From Deuterostichococcus epilithicus (Eukaryota; Chlorophyta; Trebouxiophyceae; Prasiolales; Stichococcaceae), in contig JAVTLE010000004.1 of assembly GCA_033439295.1 (NCBI GenBank), positions 496,012 through 560,011 of the forward strand: 64,000 bases of DNA. The letters are read 5' to 3'. The position numbers were made by a program, and so were the translations under genes. The stretch's first letter is position 1. Each line of letters starts with the position of its first letter. Below the pieces are notes generated by a model, which worked only from the letters and a program-made list of their open reading frames with translations, did not search any database and was not told where the DNA came from. Of the stretch, positions 548 through 63,668 are shown in pieces.

Positions 548-3500
548 ATGCCATTTCGCGTGGAGGGAAAGCCGTTGAGCGACCAATTGCGGACCAAATT
601 GCAGCGTGCATTCGCAGACGAGGATGCGGCGCCGCCGCCGGCAAAGCGTAAGCGGTGGGTGCTAGGGCGACTGGCTGCCGCGGCGCTGCGGCGGAAGCCG
701 GCGCCGCCGCCGCCACCTGCGCCGCCGCCGCCACCGCCTCCGACGGCTGAGAATCTCGAGCGGGAGGCACGACTGCGATGGTGGTGCGTTGGCGATGTCC
801 ATAACAGAATGCCAGGGCGAGGAAGCGGCTGTCAGGACATAAACCACCCAGGGAAATGTGACAGTTCGTTGTCGGTCGGATGCCTGCCACAGCGATCAAA
901 CCTCTTGCAGGAGGCGCTTCACAGCGCTGTGGCGCCGACTGCGGCCTCGCGCCGTGCGCAAAGCAGACCACTCCTTCTGAGCGCCAGACTGTGCCGGCAG
1001 GGCCGGGGCAGGCCACTTGGATCGCATCTGCAACTGCAGGTGGCCCGACGGCGAGCCGCGGCACAAGCTGCCCAACGAGACGTCGTATGGGGACCCCAAG
1101 TTCCGGCGGGAGCGGGCGGCCCCCGGGGAGCGCTCATACTACCTGCACTGGATCCGCAAGGACCTGGAGCCCTGGGCCTCGCGCGGCGGCATCACGAGGG
1201 TGAGCATGCACGCGCGGCCGCGGCACTTGGCGCGGCGGCGGCACTTGGTGCGGCAGGCTGTTGTGCCACGTTGCCCAGCGGCCGGAGGCTCGGTGGCTGC
1301 CGGTGGGCCCGACGGGGGCGTCGCTGGTCACGGGAGCATTGTTTCCCCTGAACGCCAGACATGCACTGTGCGGTGCACGTGGTTCTGAAACTCAACCTTT
1401 GGAAGGAGAGGCATGCAGAGCTGCGCCAGTGCGCATGCCGCAGACAGTTGGCGCGGGCGGGCTGCGCTGCGGAATGCCGCGCTGCCAGGCGGAGCCTGCA
1501 CCCACTGTCCCTGCATAACCCGTGCACGAAGCACCGGTGCAATTCCGGGGCTGCTGCGCGGTCGACATGCTGCGCTCCCACATTCTGCGCGGCCCGCTGT
1601 CCACGACCAATAAATAAATCTTGAGGGAACGACACCTTTGTTCTACTTCGTCTGCACTGCAGGGTGCGGTGTTCTCGGGCCGCGCGGTTTCAGGCCTACC
1701 TCGCCGGCGGTGTGCTGCACTTCCAGATCATGGCGACCCCGCTTCGTAAAGCACGTACGAGTGTCCATGTTTCTTTCATTATGCGCACACAGGAGGACGT
1801 GCGCAATGCGTCCGCGCTGTTCCGAGGCTACTGCGCCGGCGACGTGCTGCGCTTCCAAATCCTGCGGGGCCGGCTGTGGGTGGACTTTCGCACCAAGCGC
1901 ACCAAGGAGGGCTGGTTCCCCATGAAGCTCGGCATCGGTGCGCGCCTCCCCTTCTAATAGCAGCGGTTGATGGAGGGGGCCTTTGGTAGGCAGTGACTGG
2001 TCAGTACTCCAAACATTATCAAAGCTTTCAACAGGAACACATGCTGTCTTCCAGCCCCGCCGACTGGTCGTTCTGGGTGAATGCGCAGCTGCACACAGCT
2101 GCAACACCCTGCATCTCACGCCATCCAGCAGGCTCTGGGAGATCCTGGATCTCAGTTGCACAACCGAAGATTCACAAAGGGAACTTCACAGTTGGAGCTT
2201 CAACACCGAAGCTACACACCTGAGGCTTCACAACTGAAGCTGCAGCGGGGCATGTCGTGCAGGCAACACGTCGGCCAAGGGACACATCCCCTTCGTCATC
2301 TTCGCACTACTGGATGTGCTGCGCGCCTTTCCCGGCCAGGCGCGCCTGCCTCGCGCTCCTGTGAAGGAAGACTGTCTGGCAAGCGAGACGGTGTTTTCTG
2401 CTCACGCGGTGTGAGGCAGCCTGCCAAGCGAGACGGGGCCCACGCCTGCGTGCCAAGCCGGCAGAGTCACGACGCAGCAAGCTGCACCTCCGTCTGTGCT
2501 GCGCCGGCGCGGCGGCGGCGGCGCACACCGCTTCCAGTCTGACCGCTCCTTTCCTGCACGAGGGCAGCGCCCCGTTGCAGCGGGTTGCCAGCAGGCGTCA
2601 GGCAATGTGACGCCGAAATTTGCTTTCTCCACCGAGAGGCTGCCATACTTTTGCATACCCAACTCCCGTCTAGCGATGCAGTGAGGAAGGTGATCGGTTG
2701 TTTTATCGGATTACAGCTACACTTATTGTGCCTTATCTGCCTCAGATCCCGGATGTGGACGCTGTGGTGCACACAGCAGACTTCCCCTGCGTCAAGCGGT
2801 CTCCAGACACCGTAGACTACAAACGCCCACACGAGCTGATCCGGGTACGCGTGCTGGTCGTGGGCCGTGCACGAAGTGTGCTCCCACCATGCCAGCTCAC
2901 GCTCTCTCGCGTGCTGTCTGCCTTGGGCTGGCCCATCGTTAGGGCTGACAGGGCCAATTCGAGCACGCCGAGTGCTCCAGCAGGGAAGGGCCCGCCACCG
3001 TCTGCCGCGCCGATGCGCACGGCGATGGCCCGCGGGCGCGGCGGCCGCCTGCATTGCTGGCCAGCAAGCCCAATGGCTATGGGGTGCAAACGACCGGCCC
3101 TGGTGTGATGAGTGGGGCGCGAACCCTGCCTACAAACTGGGCGTTCCCCTCGCCCTGGCTGAACATACCTGGGCATACCCCGCCCTGCTGACGCATGCTT
3201 GAGCTCCCTTTGCAGGGCCGCCCAGCGCAGTGTACAACGGTGCCGCGAAGTATTGCGACGCATCTCTTTCAATGTGCTGACCAGGCACTCGCCGGCTGCC
3301 GTCACGGTGTTGATCGAGCCGTGGTGTCGCTGCAGGACCGGCCGACGCCGATGCTGGGGTACAACAGCGCTGCGGCGTACTGGGACATCCCCTTCCCTGA
3401 CTTCACCTTCTATGGACACGAGCACTCCTGGCTCAACGGTGCGCCGCCCTCGTTCCAGGGCAGCAGCTCCGACGATGCAACTGGAGAGTCGGGCTTGGCA

Positions 3501-6500
3501 ACGCGCCAGGATGCTTGCACCGCTGCTGCTCCAGCGCCCAGCGCATGCAGCAGGCTCGACGGAGACAGCTGGCAGCTCCGCAAACAAAAGCAAGCATCAG
3601 CCTCGTGTCTCCCTGCGCAGACGCAGCGGGCCGCTCGGCGGTGGGCTGGGCGTGACAGGCGGACCTTGCAGAGGCCGCATCGAAGACGGCGCTGCTGTGC
3701 GCCTCTGCCCGAACCTAGGCGTCAAATCAGCCGTCAAAACAGCTGCATCTGTTGCAGACGCGGCGGGCGGCCTCGTGGTGGGCTGGCCGCAGCAGGCAGA
3801 TTTCCTCAAGGCCAAGTACGCTGACGTGCCGCTGTCGCGCCGCAAGCCGGCGCTGGCGTGGCGCGGCCGAACGCAGGACCCGGAGCACCCCTGGCGCGAC
3901 GAGCTCAGGTGGGCACGATGGCTTGACAGCAAACCCCTGTTTTGTCTCTGTCATTGCAATGAGACAGGGAGAGAACACGGCACTCATTGCCGAGCCAGTC
4001 CCAGATCATCCCTGGCGCAACGAGCTCAGGTGGGGGCGTATTGGCCTGGCGGCAGCTTCATTGACTACTTGTCACTGTCTCTCTGTGTGCCTGTCAAAGC
4101 TTCGAGGAGAAAGAAGAGGTTACGTCACTGGGATGCCAAGAAGGTCCCACAGCGCCCGTGGCGCAATCGGCTTGAGGAAATTGTGGAAACCATTCGAAAG
4201 GAAAGCTGAAAATCGAGCTGCTGGGGGAATCCTTGTGAGTTGGGAACATATGTCCTGCATTGACCCTTCTTCAAAGCTGGCACAGGCGTCGCACGCTGGG
4301 CTGCTTGATGCAGCAAGGATGCACAAGGACGAGGCACTCCTCCTCAGCCATGCACAGGAGCTGCAGCGCCCGAACATGGCGTCAGATGCCGCTCCTGTCA
4401 CTCTTGGGCTGCCGCATATTGGCGCAGCTTCTGCAAAGACCAGAAATCGTCAGCATTGCAGTGCTTTGGGGGATACGTTCAGAGTCTTTTGAACGGTTGC
4501 CAAAGCAAGTCACCATGTTTGGGGCTCAAGCGGCGCATGACAGAGTGCTCCATGTGGTTGTCAGCGACCGAAAGAGCCGCCGGCGCGGCGCTGTCTCGTC
4601 GGACACCTGCCATGGCTGCAAACCCTGTGCGAGCTTGACGCGCAGGCGGCGCTTCACGGAGTGCCCATTGCTGCTACGGGAGGCGGGACGAGACGCCGAC
4701 GCGGCGCTGTTCGACCTGGACACGCCAAACATGACGCTCGCCAGCACCTGCGACTTCAGGTGACCCCAGCTTCACCACCAGGCTGCTGTGCATTTCATGG
4801 TCCCTCAGTTGCTTTGCTCACTTGTCAGGCGTTCTTCGACAGACTGCAGGTATGTGACGCGCACGCGGTCCCGCGCCTGTGTGTCCAACCTGCGGCAGAA
4901 GCTGGTGGGCTCCCCGCTTCAGATCGAGCGGAAAATGTCCTTATCTTCAGAAATCCAGCTCATAAAAATTAAAAATGCGTGTGTTCGATGCAATAGAGGC
5001 CCACTTGCATGGTTATTTTGCGGCAGCAGCGGGTGTGCGCCTTGCCGCCGCTGGCGCGCTGCATGAAATTGCGCTGCTTGCGAGCTCAGGAACTTGCTCA
5101 TCGCTCGAATGCACTTGCAGGTACTCGATGTACATCGAGAGCAGGGCCTACGTGTCCAACCTGCGGCAGAAGCTCGTGTGCGGCAGCCCGCTGCTGGCGC
5201 CCCGCATGACCTACTACGAGTGGTGGAGCCGCGCGCTGCAGCCGGGCGTGCACTTCGTCGAGGTGTCAGACGGGCCCGACATGTGCGACGACATCGTGCT
5301 CAAGGTGAAACCAGATGGTGAAAACCAGATGGTGAGTCCATCCGGCCAGATGTCGTTCTGCAACCGACAGCGGGGACCCTGGGCTGGACTGGATACATGC
5401 AAAGTCTGCAGTCGTGTCAGGCGCCAGCTGGTGTGCCGCTAGGCCTGCTCCGTGCGCTGCTGTGTGACCAATGGTCTCAAGCCGGCACCGGGCAACGCAC
5501 ACATCGAGTGAAACTCTGACTCTTTGGCGATCTTTGCCACTGCAGCTGCGGGAAATGGACCAGCTGGTAGCAGAGGAGGCGGCCGCCGTCGGCGAGGCGT
5601 CTGAGGGCAGCGCTGGCCCAGCGGCCGGCGGCGGGCGCAATGACAGCAGTGTCGGTGGCGGCAGCACGGCAGCGACCTCGCCCGGCGCGGGGCCAGCAGC
5701 CAGCGGAGCAAGGGACACGGCAGAGGCGTGGCAAAGGCGGCGGCGGCGACTGCATGCGCGAGCGCGAGCGCTGCTGGCCAGTGAAGCCGCTGCCGCCGCC
5801 AAGGCAGAGGGAGACGGCGGCGGCGGCGGAGCGGCAGCCGCCGAGGCGGCGTCTGAGCGGAAAGAGCGGGACAGCTGGCACGTGGAAGGTGTGCTGGCTG
5901 CCGATCATCGAGTCCAAAGTGTGGGTACCAGCCGCATTCAGCCTGATTCGGGGAGGTCATGCTCGACAGTGTGCCAGTCTGGCCCGCGCCTCAGCGACTC
6001 GTAGTCAGGAGCCCCGCGTGATGTTGTGTACCCCTGTGTCCTCAGTTTAGCTGCAAGAATGCACAGAAAGCCCTTGACTGCCCGGACCCTCACCTGCTGT
6101 GGTTAATCCACTGCAGCAGAGGTGGCGGAGGAGGCAGCGGAGGAAGCGGCGGAGGAAACAGGAAGCATCACTGAGATGGATGCTGCGGTTCACTTTGCGG
6201 GGGACCTGCGGCCGTGGGCGACGCCGCTGGGGGGCCAGGACGAGGTGTCGCCGGACGACTGGCGGCCCCGCCGCAGCTGGGGCAGCCGCCTGACGCCGGC
6301 CGAGATGGGCGAGGCCGCGCAACAGGCGCGGCTCTTTCCCCCTCGTTTGTTTCTCGAGATTCAATGAATCTTCTCGTGGCTTGCACAGACTTCGCAAGCT
6401 TTCGGCATTCCTCAAGAAGAGCAGTCGGTGCAAGGGCAGGGTTTGCTGAGATACCCTGTGCTTGGGATCGATGCGCAGAGCGGACAGCGGCGGCGCCGAG

Positions 6501-8732: not shown

Positions 8733-9159
8733 GAGTCAGAGACAATCTGGAATCGCAGCTGTGCCACTGCTCAGCTGCATGGCGCTCGTTGCACACGAGA
8801 GCACCAGCAAGGTGCATACAGAATAGCTGGCTTGGATACGCGCTGGCTGTTCTGCTGCAGCTTGCCACTTGTGCCGCGCTTAGGTGTGTGTGAAGGATGC
8901 AGCCGATGCAACTTTAGCAGAGGATGTACATCTTAATTCAGCGGTTTGTGCAGCTTGGTTTCAGCTCGTTTCAGTGAAGAGTTTCCATCGGCAACACAGT
9001 TGAGGTTTGCTGATGGTCAATTCATCCAAACCATGTGCGACAGGCGCCGCCTGTTTCCATAAATGGCCGGTTCTCGATCTCGCCGTGAGCTGAGCTGCCT
9101 TACCCTCCACTACATCCATGGTATATACACGGATCATGCGTGCCCTTCTCACCAATGCA
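8733..9159. other. 3' UTRs between two convergent genes
   Basis: This lies between the GT90 stop and the ghost of the methyltransferase last exon. No coding exon is recognisable. It probably contains the GT90 3' UTR. Confidence 0.4.
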
Positions 9160-9320
9160 CAACGAAGCCGGCGGACATGTGATCCATGTTTCAATCCGAA
9201 GTATGGGCGCATGTCCATGGCGTCAGGCCGCCCCCGAATGGCCCCAAACCAAAAACCTTTTGACCAAACCTTTTGACCAAAGCCACTGCGGCCGAGCACC
9301 TCCCGCAACGCCGGGACCTG
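9160..9320 (-). repeat. Decayed copy of the methyltransferase last exon, downstream of the gene
   Basis: On the minus strand this reads GRPDAMDMRPYFGLKHGSH and carries LGRSG upstream, against GRPDAVDLHPNFGVHMDH and WLGRSG in the true last exon (9619-9775). Shared words include GAAGCCGGCGGACATGTG and CCACTGCGGCCGAGC, the latter 457 bp apart. The open frame runs on past the true stop position, and the stretch contains a small internal tandem repeat of TTTTGACCAAA near 9258-9280. Confidence 0.8.
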
Positions 9321-9618
9321 TCCTCGTGTAAAGCAGCAACTGTCACCCTCAGTAGTCTTGCTGGCAGCGCCTACATGCCCATTCCGATATCAGCAGCAAT
9401 ACAATGTCAGCACGCAGTGACGTTTTCAGCATCCAAAAGGCGTGCTTTCGTGGGTTTTCGAGAGGACAACACACACGCATTGATATATACATGATGCTGA
9501 TAAACCCCTGCTGTTGCATGTTCGCAACATCTTTCCATTTTATCTTGGCGGAATAAAAACACCGCCGCTTTGCTCGCCTGAAGGCGCAGCTACTCGGCTT
9601 ACCTTTGAGTCTCCCGTC

Positions 9619-22338: not shown

Positions 22339-25072
22339 ATGTGCGCCATGGCAGCAGCGATGGCGGAACGGAGCTACCTGGCCGCCGTCAGCAATCCCGG
22401 AACAGAGTGCAGCATGACGACTGGCGCCCCGACGCCACATTTGCAGTCGCAGGTGGAGGCGCCAGAAGTGGACGTCTCCCAGCCCATCCTGGCGCAGGTG
22501 CGGCGCAATGAGCTGCCAAAGCTGGACACCTAGTTGGCAGTCAGCACGCTACCGAGTACAGAGTCAGCGGCCTCTTTCCGTCTGCCTCTCCAATCTGCAC
22601 ACACGAGCTTCGCCCTGCATCAACACCTCGACCGTGCAGCGCATCGCATGCATTGATTGGGTGGCGACCTCTCGATCTGCACAGCGCACACAGTACGGCC
22701 GATCGGCAGTGGCCATGGCTCCCTGAGACAGTGCCGTCCGCTGAGGCTGGCGGGGGACCCCAGCTGCACTGCGGTGCGGAGCCACGATGCTCGCTGGCGG
22801 CCGCCGCCTTGCCGCCTCCATTCCCTCCACATCTCCATGACGTCTCACGATGCCATGCAGAACCAGGCACTCTGCCCACGCAGGTGGGGCGGCTGGGGCC
22901 GCGCTATGAAGCCTGGGTGCACTCGCCCGTGGCCGGCGCCCCACGATTCTTCGCGTCGCCTGCCGCAGAGGCGCTGACCCGCACCACCTGGTGAGCATGT
23001 GCGGCTATTCCCTACAGGAGCCTTGTGTCCGACCTACAGGAGCCTTGTGTCCAACGAGTGCCACGCACGGCTTCTTGTTTGCCCTGCGTGGTGGTGACCC
23101 TCATCCAGTGGCTGCCCTCGACGCTGAGGCAGCAGGTAGTTGGTTCCATGTCAGCACCAGTCGTGCGCGGAAGGCACTTCCGCGCTGCCAAGGCTGGGAG
23201 GCGATGCGCACAGTCGTCTTGGGCACATTGCAAGCTACCAGGCTGTGCTGAAGTGCGATCCTGCCAGGAATGGGGCCTCCGCCAATGCTGCAACCAAGGC
23301 CCTGCAGCAGGGGCCGACACAAAAATCCTAAACCCTAAACTCTGCACCGCAGGTGGGTGGTGCCGCTCCTGTGGGGCCCCCTGGTGGCCGCCGGCCTCTG
23401 CGCAGTCTTCCGGGCGCCGGCGGCAGGCGNCGACGCCCGCGGCGCGGCGGCGGCCGCTGCGCAGGTCCTGGCGGGAGCGCTGCTGTGGCAGCTGGCAGAG
23501 TACAGCCTGCACCGATGGGTGGGTCGCTGGAGCTTCCGCGGAACACACTGGGAACACGCTGAAAGAGGATGTTCACTGGAGTTGGCCAGCCTGGATCCGT
23601 GTGAGTGGCCATCGGCGCAAAGCAATACATGGGGCGGCCGGCGATGCGTGCTGCAGAGCAGCGACAGCAGCGGCACTGATGGTGCCGCTAAATGTTTGCT
23701 GTGCGCGCTGCGCGGCTGCCGCAAAGGCTTTCGTGTGTCATCGAGATCACTCTTATTTGGCCCAGGAAAGCGGCGGCCACTTGCTGCTTGGCCCCATGTC
23801 AGTCACGGTTCGCGGGACTCAGGTTTCGGAATTTCTGCCTTACAGGTGTTTCACTCCGTCCCGGCGCGGCCCGCATTCATTGTCGCACACTTTGCGCTGC
23901 ACGGCTGCCACCACAAGTTTCCCGCCGACACCGGGCGCCTGGTGTTTCCGCCGCTCCCGGCGGCCACCATTGCCGCCGCAGTGTATGGCGCCCTGCGCTG
24001 CTTGCTGCCCAAGGTGCGGCTTTGCTTTCTATTAGGGTTCATCGGCAATGCATCAAAGCCGGGAGTTCCGCCCCGCTGCCGGCGGCTGTCGCAGCGAAGG
24101 CGGTGTACGGCACGCTGCCCTGCCTGCTGCACAAGGTCTGGCCGCAGGCGACAGACCTCAGCGGTGCATCAAAGTCGCATATATCGATGGAGAGGCACAG
24201 AGGTCGCAACATTGCCACCACACGTGGCGGCTTCACAGCGTGCATCCCGCGCTCGAGTGACGGCTCTGCAGCCCTGGGTGGACAGGCCGAAACGCACCGG
24301 CAGGGTTTTGCGATGCGGCACGCTGTTGGCGCAGGATCCGGCACTGCGTTACTGAACGAAGTCGTGCATTTCCAGTGGGCAATGATGCCCTCACGATCCA
24401 CCAGCACACTGTGCAGGCGTGCTCATAATGCGCACAATTCGAATTTGTCGTCTTCTGCAGGCCGCGGCGTTTGCGACATGCGTGGGCTTTGTGGGTGGCT
24501 ACGTGGCTTACGATTGCCTGCACTGCACGATGCACGCGCGGGGGGCGGCGGCGGGCCGCTGGCGCCTCTTTGCCCGGTCGCGACGCGCGCACATGAACCA
24601 CCATTACAGGTAGCAGTCAATGGAGTTCTTTTGCGAGCCTGCAGTGCCTGCGAGCCTGCAGTGCCTGCAGCTGCCGCGTCAACCCTCTTGGACTCTCGAC
24701 AAAAGGGCAGCTCACGGTCGTGGCCTGCAAACAGAAGCTCGTGGTGCATGCGTGCAGTAGTCCTTCGCGGCAGCCACTGCTCTTGCATCACTGTCAAGAT
24801 CGGGAAGAGCAGCATTTCTGCAGGATTTTGGTTGCATGCCGCGAACTTCAGGACGCAGCGATGTCACACGCTGATGCACATGCCTGCCTGTCTGTTCGTA
24901 TACGGGGCCGCTGAACATCTGTTTGGTGCCGTGCAGGAACCCCGATGCCAGCTTCGGCATCACCAGCGACCTGTTTGACGTAGTGTTTGCAACGCGGCCG
25001 CCATGCAGCAAGGCTCGCGGCGCCACAGCCGCCGCAGCCGCTGCGAGGCGGCGGCAGCTGCTGGCGAGATGA
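22339..25072 (+). CDS. Fatty acid 2-hydroxylase (sphingolipid FAH/Scs7-like, no cytochrome b5 domain)
   Basis: This is an ER membrane di-iron hydroxylase of the fatty acid hydroxylase superfamily that 2-hydroxylates very-long-chain acyl groups of ceramides. Exons: up to 22497 (VDVSQPILAQ), 22884-22990 (VGRLGPRYEAWVHSPV...FF), 23353-23518 (WVVPLLWGPLVAAGL membrane segment, AEYSLHRW), 23846-24013 (HFALHGCHHKFPAD, the central histidine cluster), 24461-24609 (GFVGGYVAYDCLHCTMH and HMNHHYR) and 24937-25072 (NPDASFGITSDLFDVVFAT, stop TGA). Phases join throughout. The N-terminus is short and lacks cytochrome b5, as in plant FAH. Start is uncertain: ATG 22339 or 22348. One ambiguous base (N at 23430) falls in the third exon. 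A ghost of exon 23846-24013 lies in the next intron. Confidence 0.88.
24048..24140 (+). repeat. Ghost copy of the 3' end of a fatty acid hydroxylase exon
   Basis: The real exon ends AVYGALRCLLPK at 24013 with a GT donor. The copy reads AVYGTLPCLLHK and ends at 24135, also followed by GT, a 122-bp step. The word GCATCAAAG recurs after both copies, so intron sequence was copied along with the exon. Confidence 0.8.
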
Positions 25073-33800: not shown

Positions 33801-36253
33801 CATGGCGACTGCGCGGGGCACGCGGCGCGGCGGGCGGTCCTGTTGCCCGCACCCTTCGTGCTGATGGCGCTGCTGGCGCACCGCCTGGTGTTCAGGTGCG
33901 TTTTGGGGTTCTAGGGCGATATGCCCAGTGAGCGCTGATCAGTGGTGGCCGTCCCGGGGCGCCCTGGAACGTGTGACCGCTCAGTTTGAGTTCGCAAGTG
34001 TGTAGGATGTGCTGTGGCTGCGCTGCGGCCAGCGCACAGGCGGCACTGGTGCCAGGGGGTGACAGGGGGTCGACCTCGTGATGTTGTAGGAATCGATCTC
34101 GGAACCGTCATCCTGCAGCGCCCTTAGTGAAACGCTTAGTAGCTATTGTCGGCTTGTCACACGCCCACTCCCACAAGCTGCTGGTCCCAGTGTTGGAGAA
34201 GCACCGGCACGTAGCAGGCGGCTGGCGATGTCTTGCGGCGCCATTGCACTGCTGCGCCTTTGTCGGCAGCCGGCGACCCACCTCCGGAGGCTGCCGCTGT
34301 TCACTCAGCCAGGCTGCTGGCACCGCCACAGGCATCTGCGGAGGGGCGGCGGCAGCAGCGGAAGCGGCAAGGGGCGCGAGCGCGGCGGCATGTCGCACAT
34401 GGCGCTGCAGCGGACGGCCTCGATGCCGGCAGCAGCGTTCGCTCTGCCGCAGGCTTTCCAGGTGTGTTTTGAGTGCAGCCGACACCGGGTGGCGCGCCCA
34501 AATCTCAGCGCGGCACTGTCAGAGCGGTGCCCTGCCGCCCCAGCGGCTGACGCAGGCCTATCGCACGTGCCCCACCTCACAGCCGCGCTGGGCTGTCCTC
34601 GCAACCGGTCGTGTGTGCCTCTCGGCTCCGTGGTCCGGGGCGGCTCTCACGCTCTGGTCGCTGCAGGCCACTGCCACGGGCATGGGCCGAGGCTGCTTCA
34701 GCGCGGCAGCATCAATTGCGTGCTGCATCCGGCGTGGCTTCCTGAGGCAACGGCATCGGCTTGGGCTCACGTCCCCTTGCCAAAGCGCAGGCCATTGCTG
34801 TGGGCGCAAGCTGGCGCGGCGGCGCTCGCCATTATGCCGTGTTCGGCAGCCCTGTATACAAGACCGCAGCGTCACCAGCAGCTTGCTTTCGACTGCGTGG
34901 CCGCAGGCCATTGCAGTGGGCGTGGGTCTTGCCTGCTTTGGCGCGGCGGCAGTCGTCGTGGCGGTCCTGGTGCCCATGGACATGCGGCCGCGGCATGCGT
35001 GGCCGCTGGCCAGCGAGTGGCTCGTCTTCTCCTTCTGCGCGCTGCTCGTTGCCTGGTTCACGGTGGGCGCCCTTTCTTGAAAGGGAGTCTTCGAAAAGGA
35101 CTAATTCAATCAGTCTATTATTTGAAATAGTCTCCGGCACAGCAAAGCACCTTTCAGCATGCGGTGTCTTCAAGAGGATTTGATCACGGATGTCAGGGAG
35201 CGGCAGGTGCCAGCTGAGATGGGATCGGTGCATGTGCGGGCAGCAGCGAGCGTGCCTCCTTTTGCTGCCTCGACGTGGTACTTGGTGTCGTCCTGTGCCT
35301 GGCGCACCCTTCTGCAAGATCAGTTGGCGGTGCAACACCGCGGGCCCGGGGGGGGAGGGGGGCAATGCAATNGAGGAAGCANGGCGTGAGCACGGCGGGC
35401 TCTCCGTCTGCACAGGAGTTGCAAGCCGGAACGTCGTGCAGCTCCACTCCCTCTTTCCCATCTTGTCAATGCACTCGCCGCAGGTGTGCTACCACAGGGG
35501 TACAGGGGCCGGCGGCGGCGCGGCAGCCAGCGCCGCAGGCGTGGTGCCGATGTCCTCCAAAAAGCCCTCCGTTTCCGTCCTCATCTCATGCTGGTAATCA
35601 CCAGCAAAGCCCTTTTTGAAAATATCCATCAGTGTCGTGCAACCTGCCGCAGGTGTGCTACCACTGGGGCCGCGGCACGGCGGCGGCGGGCGGCGGCGTC
35701 GCGGGGCTGCGCGCCGCCGGGGGGCGGCCGGTGCCAGGGTACTACTACCAGCAGCATCCCTGGCTGCGCACCGCGCTGTGAGCCCCTCTCCGCACTCTGT
35801 AGCTCCTGATATCTCCTGATATCGGGGAGATCTATGTTGTGTTCGCCGGCCCTGGACAGCAGACATGCTGGGGGTGCGGGGGCTGGCAGCGCGGGTGGAC
35901 TGTCAAAGGCACAACAGATAGTTGTCACCTGCTGACAGTGCAGCAGGTGTTTGGCGGCAGGGCCAATTTTCGTAGTCAGCCTTGACGGCTAACATGCTGC
36001 GGTGCAGCTGCAAAGGCATCAAGCATCCCATGCTGACGGGAGCTCCTACATGCACAGGTACATGGCAGTCGGCTCGGTGCTGATAGTTGCCGGCCCCTGG
36101 ACGGCGGACATGCTAGGGGTGCGCGGCCTGGCAGCGCGGGTGGTGGTGTGCCTGGCGGGCGCCGCCGGCATCGCCGTCGCCTGGACCTTCGCCTTCATAC
36201 AGCTGGCCACCACCTGGTTCGTGGCCGGCAAGGCGGAGGCCCTGTATCGATAG
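30888..36253 (+). CDS. Inositol phosphorylceramide glucuronosyltransferase (IPUT1/PGSIP6-like, GT8)
   Basis: This Golgi GT8 enzyme adds glucuronic acid to inositol phosphorylceramide, the first sugar step of plant GIPC sphingolipids. Exons: 30888-31684 (signal GLLLALALLASQCCW, glutamine-rich linker, then AYVTLLYGEPFMLGVRVLGQSL), 32028-32248 (RFWAVYTKLAIFNLTEYSR), 32576-32759 (VVFLDADTIVTRNMDEAF with the DxD motif; HSERLNSGVLVVEPS), 33127-33309 (GDQGFLNSYF), 33674-33895 (RVMHFTLGIGKPWHWFATWLV), about 34907-35060 (membrane segments), about 35653-35770 and about 36057-36253 (further membrane segments ending FVAGKAEALYR). The C-terminal multi-spanning layout matches PGSIP6. The intron after 32248 starts GC, not GT. 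The glutamine/alanine-rich linker (31000-31590) is longer than usual. Four introns hold ghost copies. Confidence 0.88.
31649..31940 (+). repeat. Three-copy ladder at the end of IPUT1-like exon 1
   Basis: The real exon end (GGGGCAGAGCCTGCGCGAGA...CCAG|GTGGG) is followed 124 bp later by a copy reading LGQSLHETGAIR and again by an AG|GT. About 122 bp further on (near 31897) is a weaker copy, GGGGCGGGGCCTGCGAG. Confidence 0.75.
33546..33620 (+). repeat. Ghost copy of IPUT1-like exon 33674-33895
   Basis: The copy reads RVMHFMLGTGAVALARHL, against RVMHFTLGIGKPWHWFATWL. Equivalent positions are 118 bp apart. The acceptor-like GCAGG is kept. It is about 75% identical by eye over the first 60 bases. 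Confidence 0.8.
34310..34850 (+). repeat. Multi-copy ladder upstream of an IPUT1-like C-terminal exon
   Basis: The exon begins GCAGGCCATTGC at about 34903. Clear copies begin at 34787 (GCAGGCCATTGCTGTGGGCG) and 34663 (GCAGGCCACTGCCACGGGCA). Weaker GCAGGC starts occur at about 34552, 34449 and 34324. Steps are 116, 124, 111, 103 and 125 bp. The two nearest copies are convincing; the outer three rest on short words. Confidence 0.6.
35478..35550 (+). repeat. Ghost copy of IPUT1-like exon near 35653
   Basis: GCAGGTGTGCTACCAC occurs at 35480 and at the true acceptor, 35649. After it the copy continues with a GGGGCCGGCGGCGGCGCGGC stretch like that of the exon. The step is 169 bp, larger than in most other sets. 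Confidence 0.65.
35845..36015 (+). repeat. Two ghost copies of the last IPUT1-like exon
   Basis: The real exon has PWTADMLGVRGLAARVVV. A copy at about 35850-35900 reads PWTADMLGVRGLAARVD in one frame and is nearly identical over 50 bases. A weaker copy with CTTGACGGCTAACATGCT lies at about 35980. The ACATGCT word falls at 35863, 35992 and 36108, steps of 129 and 116 bp. Confidence 0.8.
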
Positions 36254-42582: not shown

Positions 42583-45500
42583 ATGCGGGGGCCGGGCGTC
42601 GTGTTCTGCGGCAATCTGCCGCCGGATGTGAAGGAGAAGGAAGTTGACGACCTCTTCTACAAGGCAAGGAGGCGACACGGAACTCTGCATGTATTGGCGG
42701 CTTGCAGGCCTCCAGCCGGTGGCGCCACGCCGGAGGGCGCCGGGTCGGCCCTTGGCGCCTGCAGCTTTGCCGGACTGGATGCCTGAGAAACGTTGCTGGT
42801 GCCCCGGATGCTTCCCGCTCGTGGTGCCGGCGCTGGCCATTGCCGGACAGCCGGACCGCCTCTGCTGCTAGGACTGCCGGTCGCCACCCCCGGGCGGTCC
42901 GGTACACTGCTTTCAAATTGCATGAAGCTCGAGTGATCCCTTTGCTCTGCGGGCCTGCCCAGTCTCTGCGCCAGGTGTGGACCTGGTTGAAGTCCCATAC
43001 ATGAACAGCAGATCTTCCGCACTCAACCGCAGCTCTGACGCTCGGCCATGTGTCAACGAACTCTACAGCTGTGGTTCTGCGGGTGGCGCTTTGCGGAGAC
43101 ATGCCCTAAATTCGTGCTTGCGACCAAACCTTGCAGGAAACCCCTGTCAAGCATTGGCCTCATTTCGTGCAGCACTTTGCCATACGATGAGTCAATCGCC
43201 ACTTGCTGACTATGCTGTCCCATATCGCGATTGCAGTTTGGACGCATCAGGTACATCGACCTCAAGACGCCGCTGCGGCCGCCAGCGTTTGCCTTCGTCG
43301 AGTTCGAGGACCCCAGGTGCGCACAGCTGCCGCTCTGATTCAGCCCTGCTTTGAACTCGATTATTTGTTGCAATGCTATGCGCGCTGGCGCGCTTGTGCT
43401 TTATCTGGGATATGTTTTGTGTTGACCCGGCTGCCTGTGCCACCTGCCTTCAGCGGGCACCTCGCTCGGCGTGACACCTCACAACATCGCAGCCCCATGC
43501 CAGCGCCGCGAGCTGTGGTGGAAAGCGGCGCATCTGACCTGTCCTCACAGCAGCCCGTCAACCCTGCGGCGGCAGGGATGCCGCCGAGGCGGCCCGTGCC
43601 CGCGACGGCTACGACTTCTACGGTGCCCGGCTGCGCGTGGAGCTTGCTCGGGGCAACCAGCCGCCGGGCGGCGGCTTTGGCGGCGGCGGGTTCGGCGGTG
43701 GCGGCTACGGCGGAGGTGGCTACGGCGGGGGCGGCTACGGCGGGCCGCCAGCGCCCTACGGCGGCGGGTCCGGACCCTCCTCCAGAAACACCGAACCAGC
43801 GTCAGCGCGTTGTGTCCCGAGTGCACGCTGTTAGTTGCTCTCGCGCCGCTCTTAGCCGGGTTCAGATGCGGAGCGGTTCCGGAGAAGAAGTGCATTGGCC
43901 ACAAGCGGCCAGCTCATCATGACGGCAGCGCACTTGGTGGTGTCGCCTGGTGCCCTGTGTGCCAGTGCTCCGGCCCGATGCGCTGCCGCCCCCGCAACGG
44001 GGTGGCAGCAGGCGTCGCATCCCTGCGACATCGTGTCGAAGCGAGCTGGCGCCTCGTCTTCGTCACAGAGCGGCAGCTCTATGTTGCGACTGAGAAGCTG
44101 GAGCCGCGTCCGCATGGCTGGCAAAGCGGCGCGGCGCAGTTTGCATCGCACATTTCATGTTTCAACAGGGCGGTCCGATCCCTGGTCCCCAAAGCTCGGC
44201 AGCGCCTGCCTCCTTGCGTGGCGGACCCGCACGGCGCGTCTGACACTGGTCTCCCCCGTCCCTGCTGCGCAGGTACGGCATGCCGTCGCGGATGGGGCCG
44301 GGCGCGGGGATGCCCTCGAAGGGCTCGGCGCACCGCGCCATCGTGAAGGGGCTGCCCATCTCCGCCTCCTGGCAGGACCTCAAGGTGCAGCCGCTTTTAG
44401 GGTTCTGTCACTCGTGGTGCATGACAGAAAGATGAAGGGGTGGGGTTCATCCCCACCCCATCGTGAAGGGGCTGCCCATCGCCGCCTCCCGGCAGGACCT
44501 CAAGGTGCAGCTGCTTTTAGGGTTTTAATCACTCGTGGTGCATGACAGAAAAATGAAGGGGTGGGGTTCATCCCCACCCATCGTGGAGGGGCTGTCCATC
44601 TCCGCCTCCCGGCAGGACCTCACGGTGCAGCCCCCTTGGTCGCTCGTGGTGTCTGACAGGACCTCAGGGGAATATACTCCCTGAAAGGCGCCAACCTGAA
44701 GGGCCGCCTGCTGGCGGGACCTCAGTGTGGCCGGTTCTCTCTGCCCTGCACCTGCCAGCGGAGTCGCAGCACGAGTCGGGCGCAGGGGAACGTCAGCACG
44801 CGGTCGCCTGCCGTGCGGCGGTCCTGGCGCAACAACGCCTCTGCCGCAGCGCCCCTGCAGCCGGGGAGGTCACGAAGCACCTTTGCAGTGGGACAGCTCT
44901 GACATGGGACAGCTCCGAGCCTGCGGTGAACGGCGCAATGCCTCCTGCCGCAGGACCACTTCCGCAAGAGCCGCAAGCCGTCGTACACCAACGTCTTCCA
45001 TGACCGCGGCGGCGTGCTCGGCGTTGTGGAGTTTGAGACCCGGGAGGACCTGAAGGCCGCCATCCGCGACCTGGATGGTGCGTGCCCTTTCGATGCCATA
45101 CCGCGCACAGCTTGCAGGGAACGTTGTGCGACAAACACGTGCCACCGGGATGAGGGAGGACGCAAGAGGCCAGCCGCGATGTGGATGGAGGCTCACACAC
45201 AGTCCTGCTCACGCTCCTGCTCTCGATCTCGCTCCTGCTGTCGTTGCCACTCTCGCAACAGATCGACGGGCATGCCTCCGGGTGGACCTCCGCAGCTCAA
45301 GCGGTGTGCGCCTTGCATGCCCAGTGCCGGTGGCGTCAGAAGCCTGCGCCGTGCAGCCGAAGGCAGGCGCGTCCCTGTCTTTCCAGGTGATCCGCCTGAC
45401 GTCGGCCTCTTCTGCCCATGCAGACACCGAGTTCAAGAACCCCTTCAACAAGGTGGGCGCCTTTCTTGCTCCTGTTTGGCCTTGCCCTGCAGCAGCACTT

Positions 45501-47013
45501 GCAATCGCGGCTGCCCCTGCGCAATTGCGCCGACGCAGCCGCGGTGCCGGCGCCGCCCACACCGCCTTGCCTGAGGCGGCGGCGGCGGCACTGGCGTAAC
45601 AGCAGCCGCTGCCGCTGCATTTCAGAAGGCCCCTCCATGCTTTTCTCAGCCTCTGCCGTCTCAGCTTCGCTACACCGCCTGCCCCGGCTCTACGCCATCT
45701 GCCACGATGGACCTCGACGTCCCTGGGCTGACGTCGTGTGAGCTGCCCCCGCGCAGTGCTACATCCGGGTGATGGACGATAGCCGGGGCGGCTCCCGCTC
45801 GCGCGGCCGCTCCTACAGCCGCAGTCGCAGCCGCTCCCGCGGCAGGTGAGCACAGAGCCGCTTGCAGCTTCCAACTTCCACTCAAAACCCTTTGCAAGCT
45901 TGCAGCACGGCGCACAGACATGTGCCGCTGCTCGCGGTGCGCACGAAGTGCCATGCAAGTGCGATTTCCGAAAATTAATATTTCCGTAGCGATGGCCGTC
46001 CTGGTAACTGGCAGGTCCTACTCCCGCTCTCGCTCTCGCGGCAGGTGCGCCTGTGTTGATGTCGAGCCTCTTCGCGGCTGACGCTGTCGGTAGCACTGAA
46101 GACCGCTGGAACGATCGAATCAAAACACAGCCAGCGAGACACGAGGGCTGCAGGGGCATGCCTTAGCGTGAAAAGCACATTGGACTCCCCAGATCTCCCC
46201 AATCGAAAGCACACGATTCCACAGTCACCGCGCTGTCGCCCCGTGCTCGGCAGGTCCTACAGCCGCTCTCGTTCCCGGTCGGCCAGGTGAGAGTCTCGAA
46301 TGATGGCCTGCTTGTGAGTAAGCCGGGTTTGGCACTCAACATGCACCGAGGGGGGGACGCTCCCCTCATCTTGCACAGGCAGGTGCCCCAAGTGCGGCGC
46401 CGGTCGCCGCCGCCGCCAGCCGGGGCGCTGCGCTGTCGGACGCGACTCGGCAACACAGCTTCTTTCTGTCTGTCTGCAGCCAGCAGCTAGCTGACCCGTG
46501 CGTGTCGTGTGGGTGCCGCAGGCGAGACAGCCGGTCCCGCTCCCCGGTCTCCAGGTCCGACCTGCTGCAGGGGGACCTCGCTCCTGTTGCCCCGTCCTCG
46601 GCTGTCGGCTGTGCCGCTTGTGGCGCTTGCCGTGCTCTCAAATTGCTGCTGGCCCTGAACGGGAATGGCACCTACTGCACACCCTCAACCAGTGTTATTG
46701 TAGTCGCACCGCGATGTGGTCAGCCAGCCTGTGCAGGGTCGTGACTGAGAGCATATGACCTCACGAGGAATTTTTCAGAGGGCGATGGAGCTCAGCTGCT
46801 GTTCCTGTCGCTCCCCACAGGTCGCGCAGCCCGGTGAGCCGCAGCCGCAGCCCGGCAAGCCGCTCGCGCAGCCGCTCGCCCGCCAGCAAGTCGCGCAGCC
46901 GCAGCCGCAGCGTCGCCAGCAAGTCCAAGAGCCGGTCGCCGTCGCCGGCCAAGAGCCGCAGCGCCAGCCCCGCTGCCGCCGCAAAGTCGAAGTCCCGCTC
47001 GCCCAGCCCCTAG
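42583..47013 (+). CDS. SR splicing factor, SRSF1/SR34-like (two RRMs plus RS domain), 11 exons
   Basis: This nuclear protein binds exonic RNA and guides splice-site choice. Exons: 42583-42663 (RRM1 start, VVFCGNLPPDVKEKEVDDLF = RNP2), 43237-43316 (IDLKTPLRPPAFAFVEFEDP = RNP1), 43576-43767 (DGYDFYGARLRVELARG, then a glycine-rich GGGFGG/GGYGG linker), 44273-44384 (RRM2 start, IVKGLPISASWQDLK, matching the SWQDLKD signature), 44954-45077 (GVLGVVEFE), 45424-45452, 45757-45845 (CYIRVMDDSRGG, RS start), microexons 46015-46044, 46254-46286 and 46522-46554, and 46821-47013 (long RS tail, stop TAG). All joins keep frame. The first intron has a GC donor (AAG|GCAAGG). A fresh triple 120-bp tandem repeat covers the end of the RRM2 exon, giving extra candidate donors; SR genes commonly self-regulate by alternative splicing. 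Confidence 0.92.
44339..44665 (+). repeat. Three tandem 120-bp copies spanning the RRM2 exon end and its donor
   Basis: Copies begin at 44339, 44459 and 44579 with CCATCGTG. Each holds the last ~46 nt of the exon (AIVKGLPI.AS.QDL), the donor GTGCAG and about 70 nt of intron (GGGGTGGGGTTCATCCCC). Copies one and two differ at only a few positions; the third is shortened and more diverged. Copy two keeps an AAG|GTGCAG donor near 44504. Confidence 0.95.
46015..46554 (+). other. Three symmetric RS-domain microexons (30, 33, 33 nt)
   Basis: 46015-46044, 46254-46286 and 46522-46554 all start with one base and end with two bases of an arginine codon, so any combination can be skipped without a frame change. 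They encode SYSRSRSRGR, SYSRSRSRSAR and an RDSRSRSPVS-type repeat. The similarity of their edges (CAGGTCCTAC...CAGGTG) suggests they arose by tandem duplication. Confidence 0.8.
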
Positions 47014-53473: not shown

Positions 53474-53523
53474 AGCATAGATGCTCTGGTGCAGAGGGAT
53501 TGGAGAGGCCCCGGAGCTGATGG

Positions 53524-55101: not shown

Positions 55102-57038
55102 CTACGTGGGCGTGCCCGCCGTGGCACCGCCAGAGGTTGCAGCGGACCCGTCCCCATCGGCCGAGGCAGCAGCAGAGTTGTCGCCGCCGGCAGCGGCGCC
55201 AGCGGCAGAAGACCCACTGGCTGCAGCGGCCGCAGNGGCGGCGCCNGCCGCGGCGGCGGCAGCAGAGGACTCACCACTGGCAGCGGCGGCAGCTGAGCCG
55301 GCAGCGGCGGCAGCAGCAGCAGACCCACCGCTAGCAGCAGCAGCAGGCGGCGGCACCACCTGCAGCAGCGGCTGCCGCCGCAGAGCCTCCAGCGGCAGCG
55401 GCAGCAGCGGCANCATCACCTGCCGCTGCAGCGGCGGCAGCGGAGCCACCCGCGGCAGCCGCAGCTGCAGCCGCTGCGGAAGAGTGCAGGACAGCCAGTC
55501 AGGCTTACCACTTTTGATTTACCAAAAGGTCAAGCAAAAGGTCATGTTGCTTGGCAGAAAGACGCCGAGTCAAAGCCACGCACCTGAGCCAGCTGCAGAT
55601 GCAGCGGCGGCGGAGGCTCCCGCGTCCAGTGCGGTGCTCTCAGCGAGCTGGAAGGCTACAGCGGGCTCAATGAGCAAGATGACCTCCTCGACGGGGGCCG
55701 GCTCCGGTTCTGGTGCTGGGACTTCAGCAACGAGCACCTGCGAAAGCAAATAAGGGATCATCAATAGCCATAAACCTGAGTTTGCGGAGGCTATTTCGGC
55801 CCATACTAGTGACAGCAGAATAAGAAGTCCATGGGGTAGGAATGAGTCATTACGTAGACGTGCAAACATGCTGGCACCACAAGCTGCCGTTAAGCAGGGG
55901 CAACACGGGAGACAGCAGCACTCCATGGGTAAAGGAAACTCGCACAGTTTTCTTTGTGGCCGGTGCTGGAACGAAGAGGGTCTTCTTAGGTGTATTAGCG
56001 ACTGGGACGAAAACGATGCCTGGCGCCGCTGCATCCAGGAGAGATAGCAGGTCAGAAGCATATCGTCAATCCAATCCATCGCGACGGGAAGAAGCATGTA
56101 GGTTGACAAATTTGTTGATGCAGATTTGCTCTAGAGCTGACAAGAATAAGCAAGATAATATGACGAATTGGAGGAAAGCGCAAACGTTCAGGCTCCTCAG
56201 GCGGAGAGCCAGCAGCTGCTGCCGCAGCGGCAGCGGCATCTCCAGCAGATGAGGCTGCAGAGGAGGCCGCACCAGCTGCGGCGGCGGCGGCTGCGGCAGA
56301 GGGTAGCACAGCGGTTCTGTTGTATGCTTGCATTTCAACCAGTGTTCATGACTTCTAGTATGACGATGCTGGCGGAAGTCAAAATTGCAGATTGTTATCT
56401 ACGGACACAAAGCGGTGTTCTCGAAGTAACACCTGCCGCCGCCGAGCCTGAAGTCGTAGGCGCAGGCGCTGTCGGCGCTGCCACTCCCAGTGCCTTGCGG
56501 CCGAACAGCGTCTGCTCCGCCAATGCCTGGCCTGCATGAAAAGGCCTGACCGGAGTCGGGTACATTGCACTACTCGCTGGCTGGCGTCCGGCTGACACAC
56601 CTTGAGAAGACTAATCCTCCATCAAAATTGCACAGAAAGCAACGCGACAGTCTTGTCTTACGTATGTATTGCGGGTTATCGTGTGCAGGCCTCTCGACAG
56701 CATTGATTCAAGTCTCTACCCTCGAAAACCTAACAGAAAGGGTCATTCAGTGGATGTGGGTGCGCCGTCGAACATCCTATACGCGGTCCGTGGCAAATTT
56801 TCATGGTGCCACATACGTTTCAATTTATTGCTTGATTGTGCTTGGGAACCGCACGATGTCCAGAGTTGTGGTTGCTCAGATCATTAGTCATACGGACCGC
56901 GCGGCGGCGCTTGATCTCGCGCAGCATGCCCCAATAGCGAACGAAGTGCTTTGCTTGTTGCTGGAAGTCGGCCAGCATGGACTTACCGGCACAGAGCACA
57001 GCCAGCAGCAGAGCGGCGGAAAAGATGGCGGACTTCAT
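55102..57038 (-). CDS. Alanine-rich secreted protein, unknown function
   Basis: I do not recognise a family. Start at 57038 gives a clean signal peptide, MKSAIFSAALLLAVLCA, followed by a CCG|GTAAGT donor at about 56984. Likely exons on the minus strand: about 56443-56538 (QALAEQTLFGRKALGVA), about 56180-56309 (alanine runs, then SPPEEPE), about 55570-55745 (LVAEVPAPEPEPAPVEEVIL) and about 55102-55490 (alanine/glycine/serine repeats ending GTPT and TAG at 55102-55104). Three N bases (55236, 55246, 55413) and an apparent frame switch near 55330-55350 mean the last exon is not reliable. The protein would be an alanine-rich extracellular or wall protein. A retrotransposon inserted 30 bp after the stop now displaces its 3' UTR. 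Confidence 0.5.
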
Positions 57039-61807: not shown

Positions 61808-63668
61808 ATGTGGGCATCCGAGAAGCGGCCATCCACCTGGACCGTCGCCCTTGTGGCTTTGGTGGCAGGGCTGTCGCCCCTGCTGTTCATCGTGGTCCCG
61901 CACAGGGTGCTGTGCATACGAGCAACACGACAGGACAGCAGCAGCGGCACGCGCTGCGCCCCTTGGCCAGCGGGTTTGGCGGGGGCTGCCGCCGGTTGGA
62001 ATGAGACCGCGCGGCAGGAGTATCAGGCGTTTCTGCTGGAGGACGCCAAGCGCTTTCAGACGAGCAGACCGGCAAACTGGGCAGGTGGGCTAACAACCTG
62101 CATGCGCAATTGGGCGGCGTCTCAGTATTCCCCAACGCAGCTTGTGCTGTGCACACTGCAAGACCATGCTCAGCAAATTCTTTGAGCAGTGTAAACATGC
62201 CAATCAATGACTGCGCCTGTAGACCAGGCATGTGCATGCCCTACGCACAGGGTATGAGGGGCCCTGGATCGAGAACGCCTTCTTCGAGCACTGGCAGGCG
62301 GCGCATGCAGCCGGCGTCGACCTCGGCGACCGGCTGTACCTGCCCGTCATGTTTTTCGACTGCTCCTTCTACTGCAGCGCCGAGCGCAAGGCGGACATGA
62401 AAACATATCTCGGCGGCCTGCGCCGCGAGTACCATTACTTTATGGTGCTGCAGATCGGCAAGGGCATGGCCTGGCTGCAGATTGCTGTTCCGCCGGGTCT
62501 GGACCTCATGCTGTTCGCCTCTGTCACCAGCCGCGGCGTGCGGACGGTGCCCATCCCGCTGCTGAAGGAGGTGCGGCCAGAGACAGCAGCGTGGCAGCAT
62601 GCCCCTACTCACGTAAACAGGCACTCTGCTGGAGGTTCTGGTAATTCACTAAGGCGTTTGGTCGACACGAGCACACTTACGTACAAACAGTAATGCTGCC
62701 GGTTTGTGCCATCATGCACTACTATGTTGAGGCGGGCGCTACCGGCGCCGCTGTATTCAGACAGAACTGATGGTACTGCCAGCTGCTGGCCTTCCCCCGT
62801 GTGAGAGCCAGTGCTGTTTCGCATTCGCTAGACCCAGACGTAGTGTCCCAAGGCAGGTGCTGGCGCCGGCGGGCACGTGCTCCAGGGCATCGACCACCGC
62901 CTGCTGCATGCGCAGGGCGGTTCATCTACGAGTGATTGCAACTCCAAGGAGCTGAAGCGTATGAATGCAGGTGCTGACGCCGGTGGGCCTGGCGAAGGAC
63001 ATCAAAGCCAGCTTCTTCGGCGGGCTGCACACGCACAAGATGCGAGGCGAGGTGCACGCACAGCTGGCGCCGCACGGCTTCCTGTTCGGAAAGGCAGACA
63101 ACGCCACGACGGCGCGCATCACCGAGCGCTCCAACTTCACGCTGGCTCCGCGCGGGTTCGGGTCCACGTCCTGGCGCCTGTATGAAGCGCTGCAGCTGGG
63201 CTCCGCTCCCGTGTACATCTGGGACTACGACCTGGTCCTACCCTTCCAGGTCCTGCTGCTTCACCCCGACAGCCTTCCCCACCTTCGCGTTTCGTTCAGG
63301 GTTTTGTTGCCACATGACTCGAAACTTACAGCAGCAGGGTTGCCGCTCCAGGGGGTTGCCACAGTGTGTCCGATGGAAGGTGTGTGAGCATGAGCGTGCC
63401 TGGCGGTGCATGACGTCGAGCCGTCCTGCCGCTGCAGGAGCTGCTCAACTGGAACGAGATGGCCATCATCGTCCACCGAAAAGAGATGCAGACAGTACCG
63501 CAGCGCATGCGGGACTTTGACCTGCCACGGGCACAGACGCTCATGGCGCAGTACAGGTACATGTGGACGTACAACTTCACCTGTGGGTACATAGTTGACC
63601 GGCTGCGCAACGAGCGTTGCTTTCCGGTGCCCTTCTCCACACGGGCGGATATCCCGGGCATCGAATAG
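61808..63668 (+). CDS. Exostosin-family glycosyltransferase (GT47)
   Basis: This is a type II Golgi membrane glycosyltransferase of the exostosin/GT47 family, which builds wall polysaccharides or glycoprotein glycans. Exons: 61808-62083 (cytoplasmic basic tail, anchor TWTVALVALVAGLSPLLFIV, stem), 62252-62570 (YEGPWIENAFFEHW, LYLPVMFFDCSFYCSAE), 62971-63249 (FFGGLHTHKMRGEV, ITERSNFTLAPRGFGSTSWRLYEAL and APVYIWDYDLVLPF, the conserved GT47 sugar-nucleotide region) and 63438-63668 (ELLNWNEMAIIVH, stop TAG). All joins keep frame (ANWAG|YEGPW). Sequon-like NFT and NAT occur. The acceptor substrate is unknown. A short ghost of exon three lies in the preceding intron. Confidence 0.85.
62852..62880 (+). 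repeat. Ghost copy of the start of GT47 exon 62971-63249
   Basis: CAGGTGCTGGCGCCGGCGGG at 62854 matches CAGGTGCTGACGCCGGTGGG at the true acceptor, 62968, a 114-bp step. Similarity fades after about 30 bases. Confidence 0.65.

What the first reader, a model, noticed from the sequence alone, without database searches (positions are those of the whole stretch)
1676..62990. Introns of several unrelated genes are ladders of decayed ~120-bp copies of the neighbouring exon edge
Seen directly: in the GT90, fatty acid hydroxylase, IPUT1-like, SR and GT47 genes (and downstream of the methyltransferase) the DNA beside an exon holds one to several same-strand copies of the exon edge, splice site included. 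Steps cluster near 120 bp: 120 (3211/3331), 121 (3908/4029), 122 (24013/24135), 124 and about 122 (31.65-31.9 kb), 118 (33.55/33.67 kb), 124 and 116 (34.66-34.90 kb), 129 and 116 (35.86-36.11 kb), 120 and 120 (SR gene), 114 (62.85/62.97 kb); others are 128-147. Copies range from near-identical to barely visible. Established idea: tandem duplication of a segment holding AG|GT can make or enlarge an intron without changing the protein. Inference: a recurrent process with a preferred ~120-bp length acts on exon-intron borders in this lineage and may account for much intron growth.
Basis: partly seen in the sequence, partly recalled or inferred. Interest (0 to 1): 0.9.

Follow-up and report, generated by a model that had tools for sequence, protein, structure and literature searches.

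The report
Old 120-bp duplications that lengthened introns
In a green alga, many introns contain worn copies of the neighbouring exon's end about 120 bases away, best read as the remains of an old wave of 120-base tandem duplications that helped lengthen introns, above all on one chromosome piece.

Summary
In 324 kb of this genome (window plus 260 kb), 54 of 1159 tested exon edges have a same-strand copy within about 420 bp (score>=16), against 0-1 in shuffled, reverse-complement and 2-4 kb controls. Near steps have median 120 bp, IQR 116-123 (27 edges); a second mode lies at 220-279 bp. Homologous proteins confirm that four consecutive IPUT1 introns each hold a copy. No dispersed family was found. 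Mismatches are nearly even over codon positions, as expected of decaying intronic copies.

The 'border' part of the reading is not needed. Simulated tandem duplications at random positions, if old (25-30% substituted per copy), roughly reproduce the excess of exon-intron over intron-intron similarity: the exon, frozen by selection, keeps the trace visible. A steady ongoing process does not fit.

New here: concentration on the window's contig (44/331 edges against 20/964; introns >300 bp 71/238 against 44/585), where it may explain about half of the extra intron length. The 120-bp ruler and the contig bias are unexplained. Duplication across splice sites is known; I did not find this scale and fixed size in print.

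The parts
1521..1600 (+). GT90 gene: far copy (lag 277) of exon start 1798-1877
   Evidence: alignment 76% over 80; not reached at random
1655..1743 (+). GT90 gene: near copy (lag 132) of exon start 1788-1875
3617..3663 (+). GT90 gene: copy (lag 137) of the exon start at about 3757
3866..3913 (+). GT90 gene: exon end with donor after 3908; copy 121-123 bp downstream (about 3989-4036)
4540..4612 (+). GT90 gene: copy (lag 116) of exon 4656-4727
4845..5066 (+). GT90 gene: two copies (4845-4918, lag 271; 5019-5066, lag 143) of exon 5116-5209; the gene model counts parts of these copies as exon, so their status is uncertain
9126..9350 (-). Copies of methyltransferase exon sequence 3' of the gene (lags 457-467)
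23978..24142 (+). FA hydroxylase gene: exon end 23978-24020 and copy 24100-24142 (lag 122)
31649..31689 (+). IPUT1-like gene: exon end and donor, source of copies at 31779-31819 (lag 130) and about 31896-31938 (lag 248)
31686..32025 (+). Homology-bounded IPUT1 intron (340 bp) holding the copies of the upstream exon end
32430..32489 (+). Copy (lag 134) of the exon start at about 32563, in homology-bounded intron 32248-32562
32856..32897 (+). Copy (lag 138) of exon end 32718-32758, in homology-bounded intron 32761-33127
33552..33607 (+). Copy (lag 118) of exon start 33670-33725, in homology-bounded intron 33368-33671
34657..34806 (+). Two copies (34657-34711, lag 240; 34786-34806, lag 116) of exon start 34897-34951
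35458..35549 (+). Copy (lag 168) of exon sequence 35626-35716; the gene model counts part of the copy as exon
35845..36005 (+). Copies (35845-35898, lag 244; 35980-36005, lag 116, modest) of exon 36089-36143
44338..44632 (+). SR gene: young 120-bp tandem array, 2.5 units of 47 bp exon end plus 73 bp intron start; first unit is the real exon end
46010..46047 (+). SR gene RS-rich segment with copy at 46249-46289 (lag 239)
62850..62874 (+). GT47 gene: copy (lag 114) of the exon start at about 62970

Best explanation
The ladders are remains of DNA-level tandem duplications with a characteristic unit of about 120 bp (range about 85-160), placed at random with respect to exons and introns. Exons and introns are short here, so many 120-bp segments span a splice site (about 43% on C4). 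Such a duplication leaves the real exon and splice site usable, and the spare copy is removed with the intron, which grows by one unit; repeats give steps near 240. The exon is held by selection while the spare copy decays, so the exon-to-copy match outlasts the intron-to-intron match (single against double divergence), which makes it look as if borders were the target. Most events are old (roughly 20-30% substituted per copy) and far denser on the window's contig C4. Shown: copies, ruler, locality, decay pattern, contig excess. Inferred: random placement, age, and the breakage mechanism (staggered break or paired nick, fill-in, end joining); what sets 120 bp is unknown.
For: Tight steps: 27 near edges, median 120, IQR 116-123 (some are two edges of one event, 3 are the SR array), spread over all three frames 10/7/10. 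Multiples at 220-279, few at 160-219. Young cases show the whole unit duplicated: SR array 120 bp x 2.5 copies at 92%; C4 9817-10068 aligned over 130 columns at lag 124; C9 25438-25690. Donor and acceptor sides equal, 26 against 28. Mismatch rates by codon position .165/.160/.229 over 32 pairs. Intron flanks of the copies are also related: 11 of 27 rank below .05 (9 of 24 without the SR rows; some rows are two edges of one event), mean z 2.6. Intron-intron excess on C4 is highest at lag 120.22 +/- .03 without SR. Random-position simulation at d .25-.30 gives a hit ratio (exon-intron to intron-intron) of 8-21 and an excess-score ratio of 1.7-3.4, against 12-18 and 1.7-1.9 observed (SR in or out); border-only placement at d .22 gives 11.7 and 4.9 and at no tested d meets both. 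No dispersed family seen.
Against: Some well-preserved copies have intron flanks no better than controls: window 33673 and C12 26601 (both 26/30 exon match, ranks .29 and .50); C12 14932 matches 29/30 in the exon but its flank is only slightly above controls (12.9 against 10.0). Similarity stops sharply at the acceptor (near baseline from about -6 outward, 21 events). Under neutral duplication these need luck in detection or slower decay of the copy. The intron-intron peak is weak: the share of mid-scoring tiles on C4 is about flat from lag 60 to 150, and outside C4 intron-intron excess is highest at lags 60 and 150, not 120. Uniform ages are rejected (predicted ratio .4-.5 against 11), so an old, narrow age must be assumed. 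At gene level the contig excess of decayed copies alone is modest (9/22 against 7/56 genes, p .01). Exon labels come from my own ab initio finder; only IPUT1 was checked by homology across introns.
Confidence: 0.62

Rival explanations
1. Exon-end copying: a process that copies 30-60 bp of exon end with its splice site into the adjacent intron about 120 bp away, with unrelated filler between (duplication with filler at a staggered break, or an RNA-linked process aimed at splice sites).
For: Similarity stops at the splice site; exon-intron tile hits 55/1622 against intron-intron 5/2140 at lag 120 on C4; some well-preserved copies with unrelated flanks.
Against: Intron flanks are significantly related overall; weak intron-intron excess on C4 is highest at the same lag; young cases carry the intron half too; one age range roughly explains both ratios under random placement.
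Confidence: 0.2
2. The copies are kept by selection as decoy or alternative exon ends, after ordinary duplication.
For: 13 copies that keep CAG have acceptor-like upstream sequence (mean .70 against 1.08 in real acceptors and -.92 for random CAG; p .0017 against random.29 against real) and 12 that keep GT lean the same way (p .029 against random); some copies outlast their flanks.
Against: Mismatches nearly even over codon positions, and 9 of 32 pairs have gaps; exon matches run from 29/30 down to the 21/30 limit; acceptor-likeness is also what a decayed duplicate acceptor would show.
Confidence: 0.1
3. Intron birth by the classic AGGT model: exonic tandem duplication in which the two AG|GT become the new splice sites.
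For: Same-strand duplication with AG|GT at many copy borders; two introns have length close to lag (99/97, 109/109).
Against: The 27 introns holding a decayed copy have median 345 bp, far longer than the lag; similarity does not run across the splice site.
Confidence: 0.05
4. Introners or other mobile intron elements.
For: Many introns share an internal pattern of similar size.
Against: All-against-all comparison of 324 kb gave 11 distant hits, one of them the LTR pair and five among a few C12 places (the hits were not examined one by one); two intron units searched in the whole genome match only their own array.
Confidence: 0.01
5. Chance or low-complexity similarity, or assembly error.
For: The genome is GC-rich with many simple repeats.
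Against: Shuffled, reversed and far controls give 0-1 per about 1000-1160 edges; most copies are diverged (alignments mostly of 64-93% identity), which mis-assembly does not produce.
Confidence: 0.02

Closest known systems
Tandem duplication crossing an intron-exon boundary in the potato RdRp gene (PMC4974935; abstract and Results section read)
   Same: A same-strand tandem duplication spans an intron-exon border and splicing copes with it.
   Different: One gene in potato, with a new intron gained; here dozens of edges in many genes, a fixed ~120-bp unit, and mostly longer introns rather than extra ones.
[quoted passage not shown] passages read)
   Same: Tandem duplication is the source of the intronic sequence.
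   Different: There the duplicated AGGT supplies both new splice sites and intron length equals the unit; here most hit introns are far longer than the unit.
Introners (PMC9860276, passages read; Micromonas classes in PMC3879977, passages read)
   Same: Episodic addition of intron sequence in algae.
   Different: Introners are dispersed families; here copies were found only beside their source.
Big Outlier Chromosome introns of Mamiellophyceae (PMC3879977, passages read)
   Same: One chromosome has introns unlike the rest.
   Different: BOC1 introns are short and AT-rich in a low-GC region; C4 introns are longer, with normal GC.
Small tandem duplications from fill-in and end joining of staggered breaks (PMC8355091, passages read; Vaughn and Bennetzen 2014 seen only in its reference list)
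   Same: A plausible mutational source of short tandem duplications.
   Different: That paper speaks of small duplications as the commonest short (<100 bp) insertions in human; the passages read give no fixed 120-bp step.

Membership tests
Tandem duplication spanning exon-intron borders | Same-strand neighbouring copies at a constant step | tested here: met
Tandem duplication spanning exon-intron borders | Whole unit, intron half included, is duplicated | tested here: inconclusive
   Clear in young cases; 11 of 27 flanks rank <.05; absent in some well-preserved copies
Rogers AGGT intron gain | Intron length equals duplication step, similarity runs across both splice sites | tested here: not met
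   two possible exceptions by length
Rogers AGGT intron gain | Intron absent from orthologs | not testable with these tools
   no related genome held (answer)
Introners | Similar introns dispersed in many genes | tested here: not met
   324-kb sample and two genome-wide queries:
Introners | TSD or TIR | not tested
   no dispersed family to test
Mamiellophyte-type outlier chromosome | Low GC and short AT-rich introns | tested here: not met
   C4 intron GC .58-.59 as elsewhere; introns longer
Staggered-break duplication | Break-repair dependence | not testable with these tools
   needs mutants or mutation-accumulation lines

The most novel reading that the evidence does not exclude
One chromosome of this alga went through an old burst of tandem duplications cut to a ruler of 120 bp, perhaps set by a chromatin particle or a repair step, which lengthened its introns as a class. 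Intron growth would then be a chromosome-specific, unit-by-unit process whose record is legible because exons keep the original.
Probability: 0.4. Interest if true: 0.8.

Novelty: new variant of a known kind. Interest (0 to 1): 0.62.

Why it matters
How introns grow without transposons is poorly documented. If right, exon ends are a built-in reference against which old duplications in introns can be counted, sized and dated in any intron-rich genome. Here that gives a fixed 120-bp unit and a strong chromosome bias, two features that a mutational mechanism must explain and that can be tested in sister strains.

Tried and rejected
Rejected: steady-rate random duplication (predicts an exon-intron to intron-intron ratio of .4-.5 against 11); border-only duplication (no tested d meets both the hit ratio and the excess-score ratio); introners; coding alternative exons; a foreign C4 contig (codon-usage r .88-.96 with other blocks, same splice signals); a GC-based outlier chromosome.

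Led nowhere or flawed: the 'far' control was faulty (negative slice, self-hits) and was redone. The refinement aligned segments with themselves and was redone. The first gene finder chained genes and was replaced by a two-strand version. One search scored too leniently to give unit limits. In one search the far copy had higher identity to the exon than the near one in 7 of 8 ladders (and a higher score in 7 of 8), but I had picked ladders by their far copy, so I draw nothing from it. One search included the SR array, and a first ratio of about 2.6 worked out by hand from it depended on an assumed background; one search repeats it with and without SR and with a measured background (1.65 and 1.85), and these are the figures used. 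The kinase search gave too few C4 matches to compare intron lengths by contig. None of the listings (titles and abstract starts) of literature searches describes this pattern, and one search found no paper; the library is open-licence papers only.

Rows dropped before counts: skips low-complexity queries and those near block ends (1159 of 1295 edges used). One search keeps pairs scoring >=15 whose copy is at most 20% annotated exon and merges edges within 60 bp (32 pairs). One search keeps events scoring >=15 with at least 21/30 exon matches (40). One search uses the 27 of those 40 with lag <170, SR edges included.
Full report
WHAT WAS CHECKED. The window is G000:C4:496012-560011 of a 46.8-Mb, 21-contig genome. 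Proteins point to a green alga: among the best named hits of the IPUT1-like protein are Bryopsis, Auxenochlorella and Chlorella vulgaris at 33-44% identity, so the species does not seem to be in that protein set. I worked on the window plus 260 kb of the same genome, 324 kb in nine blocks: the window and another block on C4, and seven blocks on other contigs, each containing an RRM hit, so the sample is not random.

In the window, 14-mer pairs peak at 120-129 bp (53, against 0-6 in the other 10-bp bins from 40 to 179). An unanchored scan of 324 kb gave 59 clusters of local direct repeats with lag 60-450; 25 of them have lags 115-144. An earlier unanchored scan of 264 kb gave 55 clusters >=17 at 50-450 bp, against 3 and 0 at 1.05-1.45 and 5.05-5.45 kb and 11 inverted. 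Anchored on predicted exon edges, 54 of 1159 score >=16, against 0-1 in shuffled, reversed or distant controls and 7 of 1140 in the next 420 bp. Lags fall at 80-159 (36), 160-219 (2), 220-279 (13) and 300-339 (3).

THE COPIES ARE IN REAL INTRONS. Exon calls come from an ab initio two-strand finder that I wrote and trained on the sample; it has no RNA support. For the IPUT1 gene, the 120 listed homologous proteins mark exons independently. The four introns between them (340, 315, 367 and 304 bp) each hold a copy of one flanking exon edge, with no equal among up to 3000 random placements; the other flanks gave p .46.42.009 and 1.0. For the SR gene, removing the whole intron joins a normal RRM, and the array lies inside that intron.

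WHAT KIND OF COPY. They are local; no intron family was seen. Exon-to-copy mismatches run .165/.160/.229 over codon positions 1, 2 and 3 (32 pairs, chi-square p .03): close to even, with a third-position surplus that fits synonymous change in the exon. Changes from G/C to A/T outnumber the reverse (91 against 65). The near steps are tight (median 120, IQR 116-123, n=27, some being both edges of one event) and show no frame preference.

THE PUZZLE AND ITS RESOLUTION. Similarity is high in the exon and falls to near baseline by +20 at donors and about -6 at acceptors (40 events). On C4 at lag 120, exon-intron tiles hit 55/1622 but intron-intron only 5/2140. Randomly placed duplications of all ages predict the reverse (ratio .4-.5). 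If the duplications are old, the double divergence of the intron-intron half hides it: at d=.25 the predicted hit ratio is 10.5, or 8.0 over the wider lag range. The model then predicts a weak intron-intron excess at the same lag. On C4 it is there: direct minus reverse-complement score is .22 (s.e. .03) at lag 120 without the SR array, the highest of twelve lags, the others running from -.09 to .16. Flanks of the copies are related in 11 of 27 events, 9 of 24 without SR. But the share of mid-scoring intron-intron tiles on C4 is about flat from lag 60 to 150, and outside C4 the intron-intron excess is highest at lags 60 and 150. The observed hit ratio is 12-18 and the excess-score ratio 1.7-1.9 (SR in or out). 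Random placement gives 8.0 and 1.65 at d=.25, and 21 and 3.4 at d=.30; border-only placement gives 3.6 and 3.0 at d=.15, 11.7 and 4.9 at d=.22, and so does not meet both. Against this reading, some well-preserved copies have flanks no better than controls (window 33673, C12 26601), and C12 14932, with 29/30 exon matches, only slightly better, so a copy-only process or slower decay of the copies is not excluded.

CONTIG BIAS. Hits are on 44 of 331 edges on C4 (two separate blocks) and 20 of 964 elsewhere (score>=15). Introns over 300 bp are 71/238 against 44/585. Permuting the 78 genes between contigs, none of 20000 shuffles reached the observed differences; counting only genes with a decayed copy, 9/22 against 7/56, p .01. 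GC, codon usage and splice signals are alike. Dividing the excess scores by the simulated score per event (d .25-.27) gives, by hand, roughly 60-100 duplications in 104 kb, about 7-12 kb, against about 16 kb of extra intron (66 bp x 238). So the process could account for about half of the extra intron on C4. This rests on assumed indel rates and on my gene models.

HOW IT WORKS, STEP BY STEP. Shown: ~120-bp same-strand duplications, decay of the intronic copy, contig excess, longer introns. Inferred: a mutational origin by staggered breaks with fill-in and end joining, as described for small tandem duplications (PMC8355091, passages read); survival because splicing removes the spare copy; an old wave rather than a steady rate. 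Unknown: what sets 120 bp, and why C4. A selective explanation of the size seems unlikely for added units in an existing intron, since shorter units should do no more harm, yet exon-intron hits at lag 60 on C4 are 0/724 (1/1088 at finer steps).

KNOWN OR NEW. Tandem duplication across an intron-exon border is known, for example in potato RdRp (PMC4974935, abstract and Results read), and tandem duplication is an accepted source of introns (PMC3443670, passages read). I found no report of a fixed 120-bp step, of ladders in many genes, or of a chromosome bias in the listings of searches of an open-licence library. I file it as a new variant of a known kind.

Noticed in passing
window 49049-55072 (- strand): Young LTR retrotransposon: two 389-bp LTRs (49049-49437 and 54684-55072) are 100% identical; predicted products between them read like Ty3-type gag and pol (recalled motifs, no family search run).
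   Followed up: partly
L031-L032 block, G000:C5:2364059-2364306 (- strand): A ~113-bp intron-like unit with both splice sites is present twice, 91% identical, separated by about 22 bp; similarity begins and ends at the splice sites and no other copy was found in the genome. Could be a local intron transposition rather than a tandem duplication.
   Followed up: partly
window 9126-9350 and 9591-9810: Copies of methyltransferase exon sequence lie 3' of that gene at lags 457-467, larger than the 120-bp class.
   Followed up: no
window 55185-55470: 27/54-bp GC-rich tandem repeats in a predicted exon.
   Followed up: no
G000 C7 block (L033-L034) positions 15.8-17.5 kb: Long coding tandem repeats with lags 126-363 in predicted exons; they probably inflate exon-exon counts outside C4.
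   Followed up: no
G000 contig C21: Holds a RuBisCO large-subunit match in a 475-codon open frame without stops, so probably the plastid contig; it could identify the species.
   Followed up: no
G000 contig C4: Only 2 of the 146 listed kinase-domain matches lie on C4, which is 4% of the genome.
   Followed up: no
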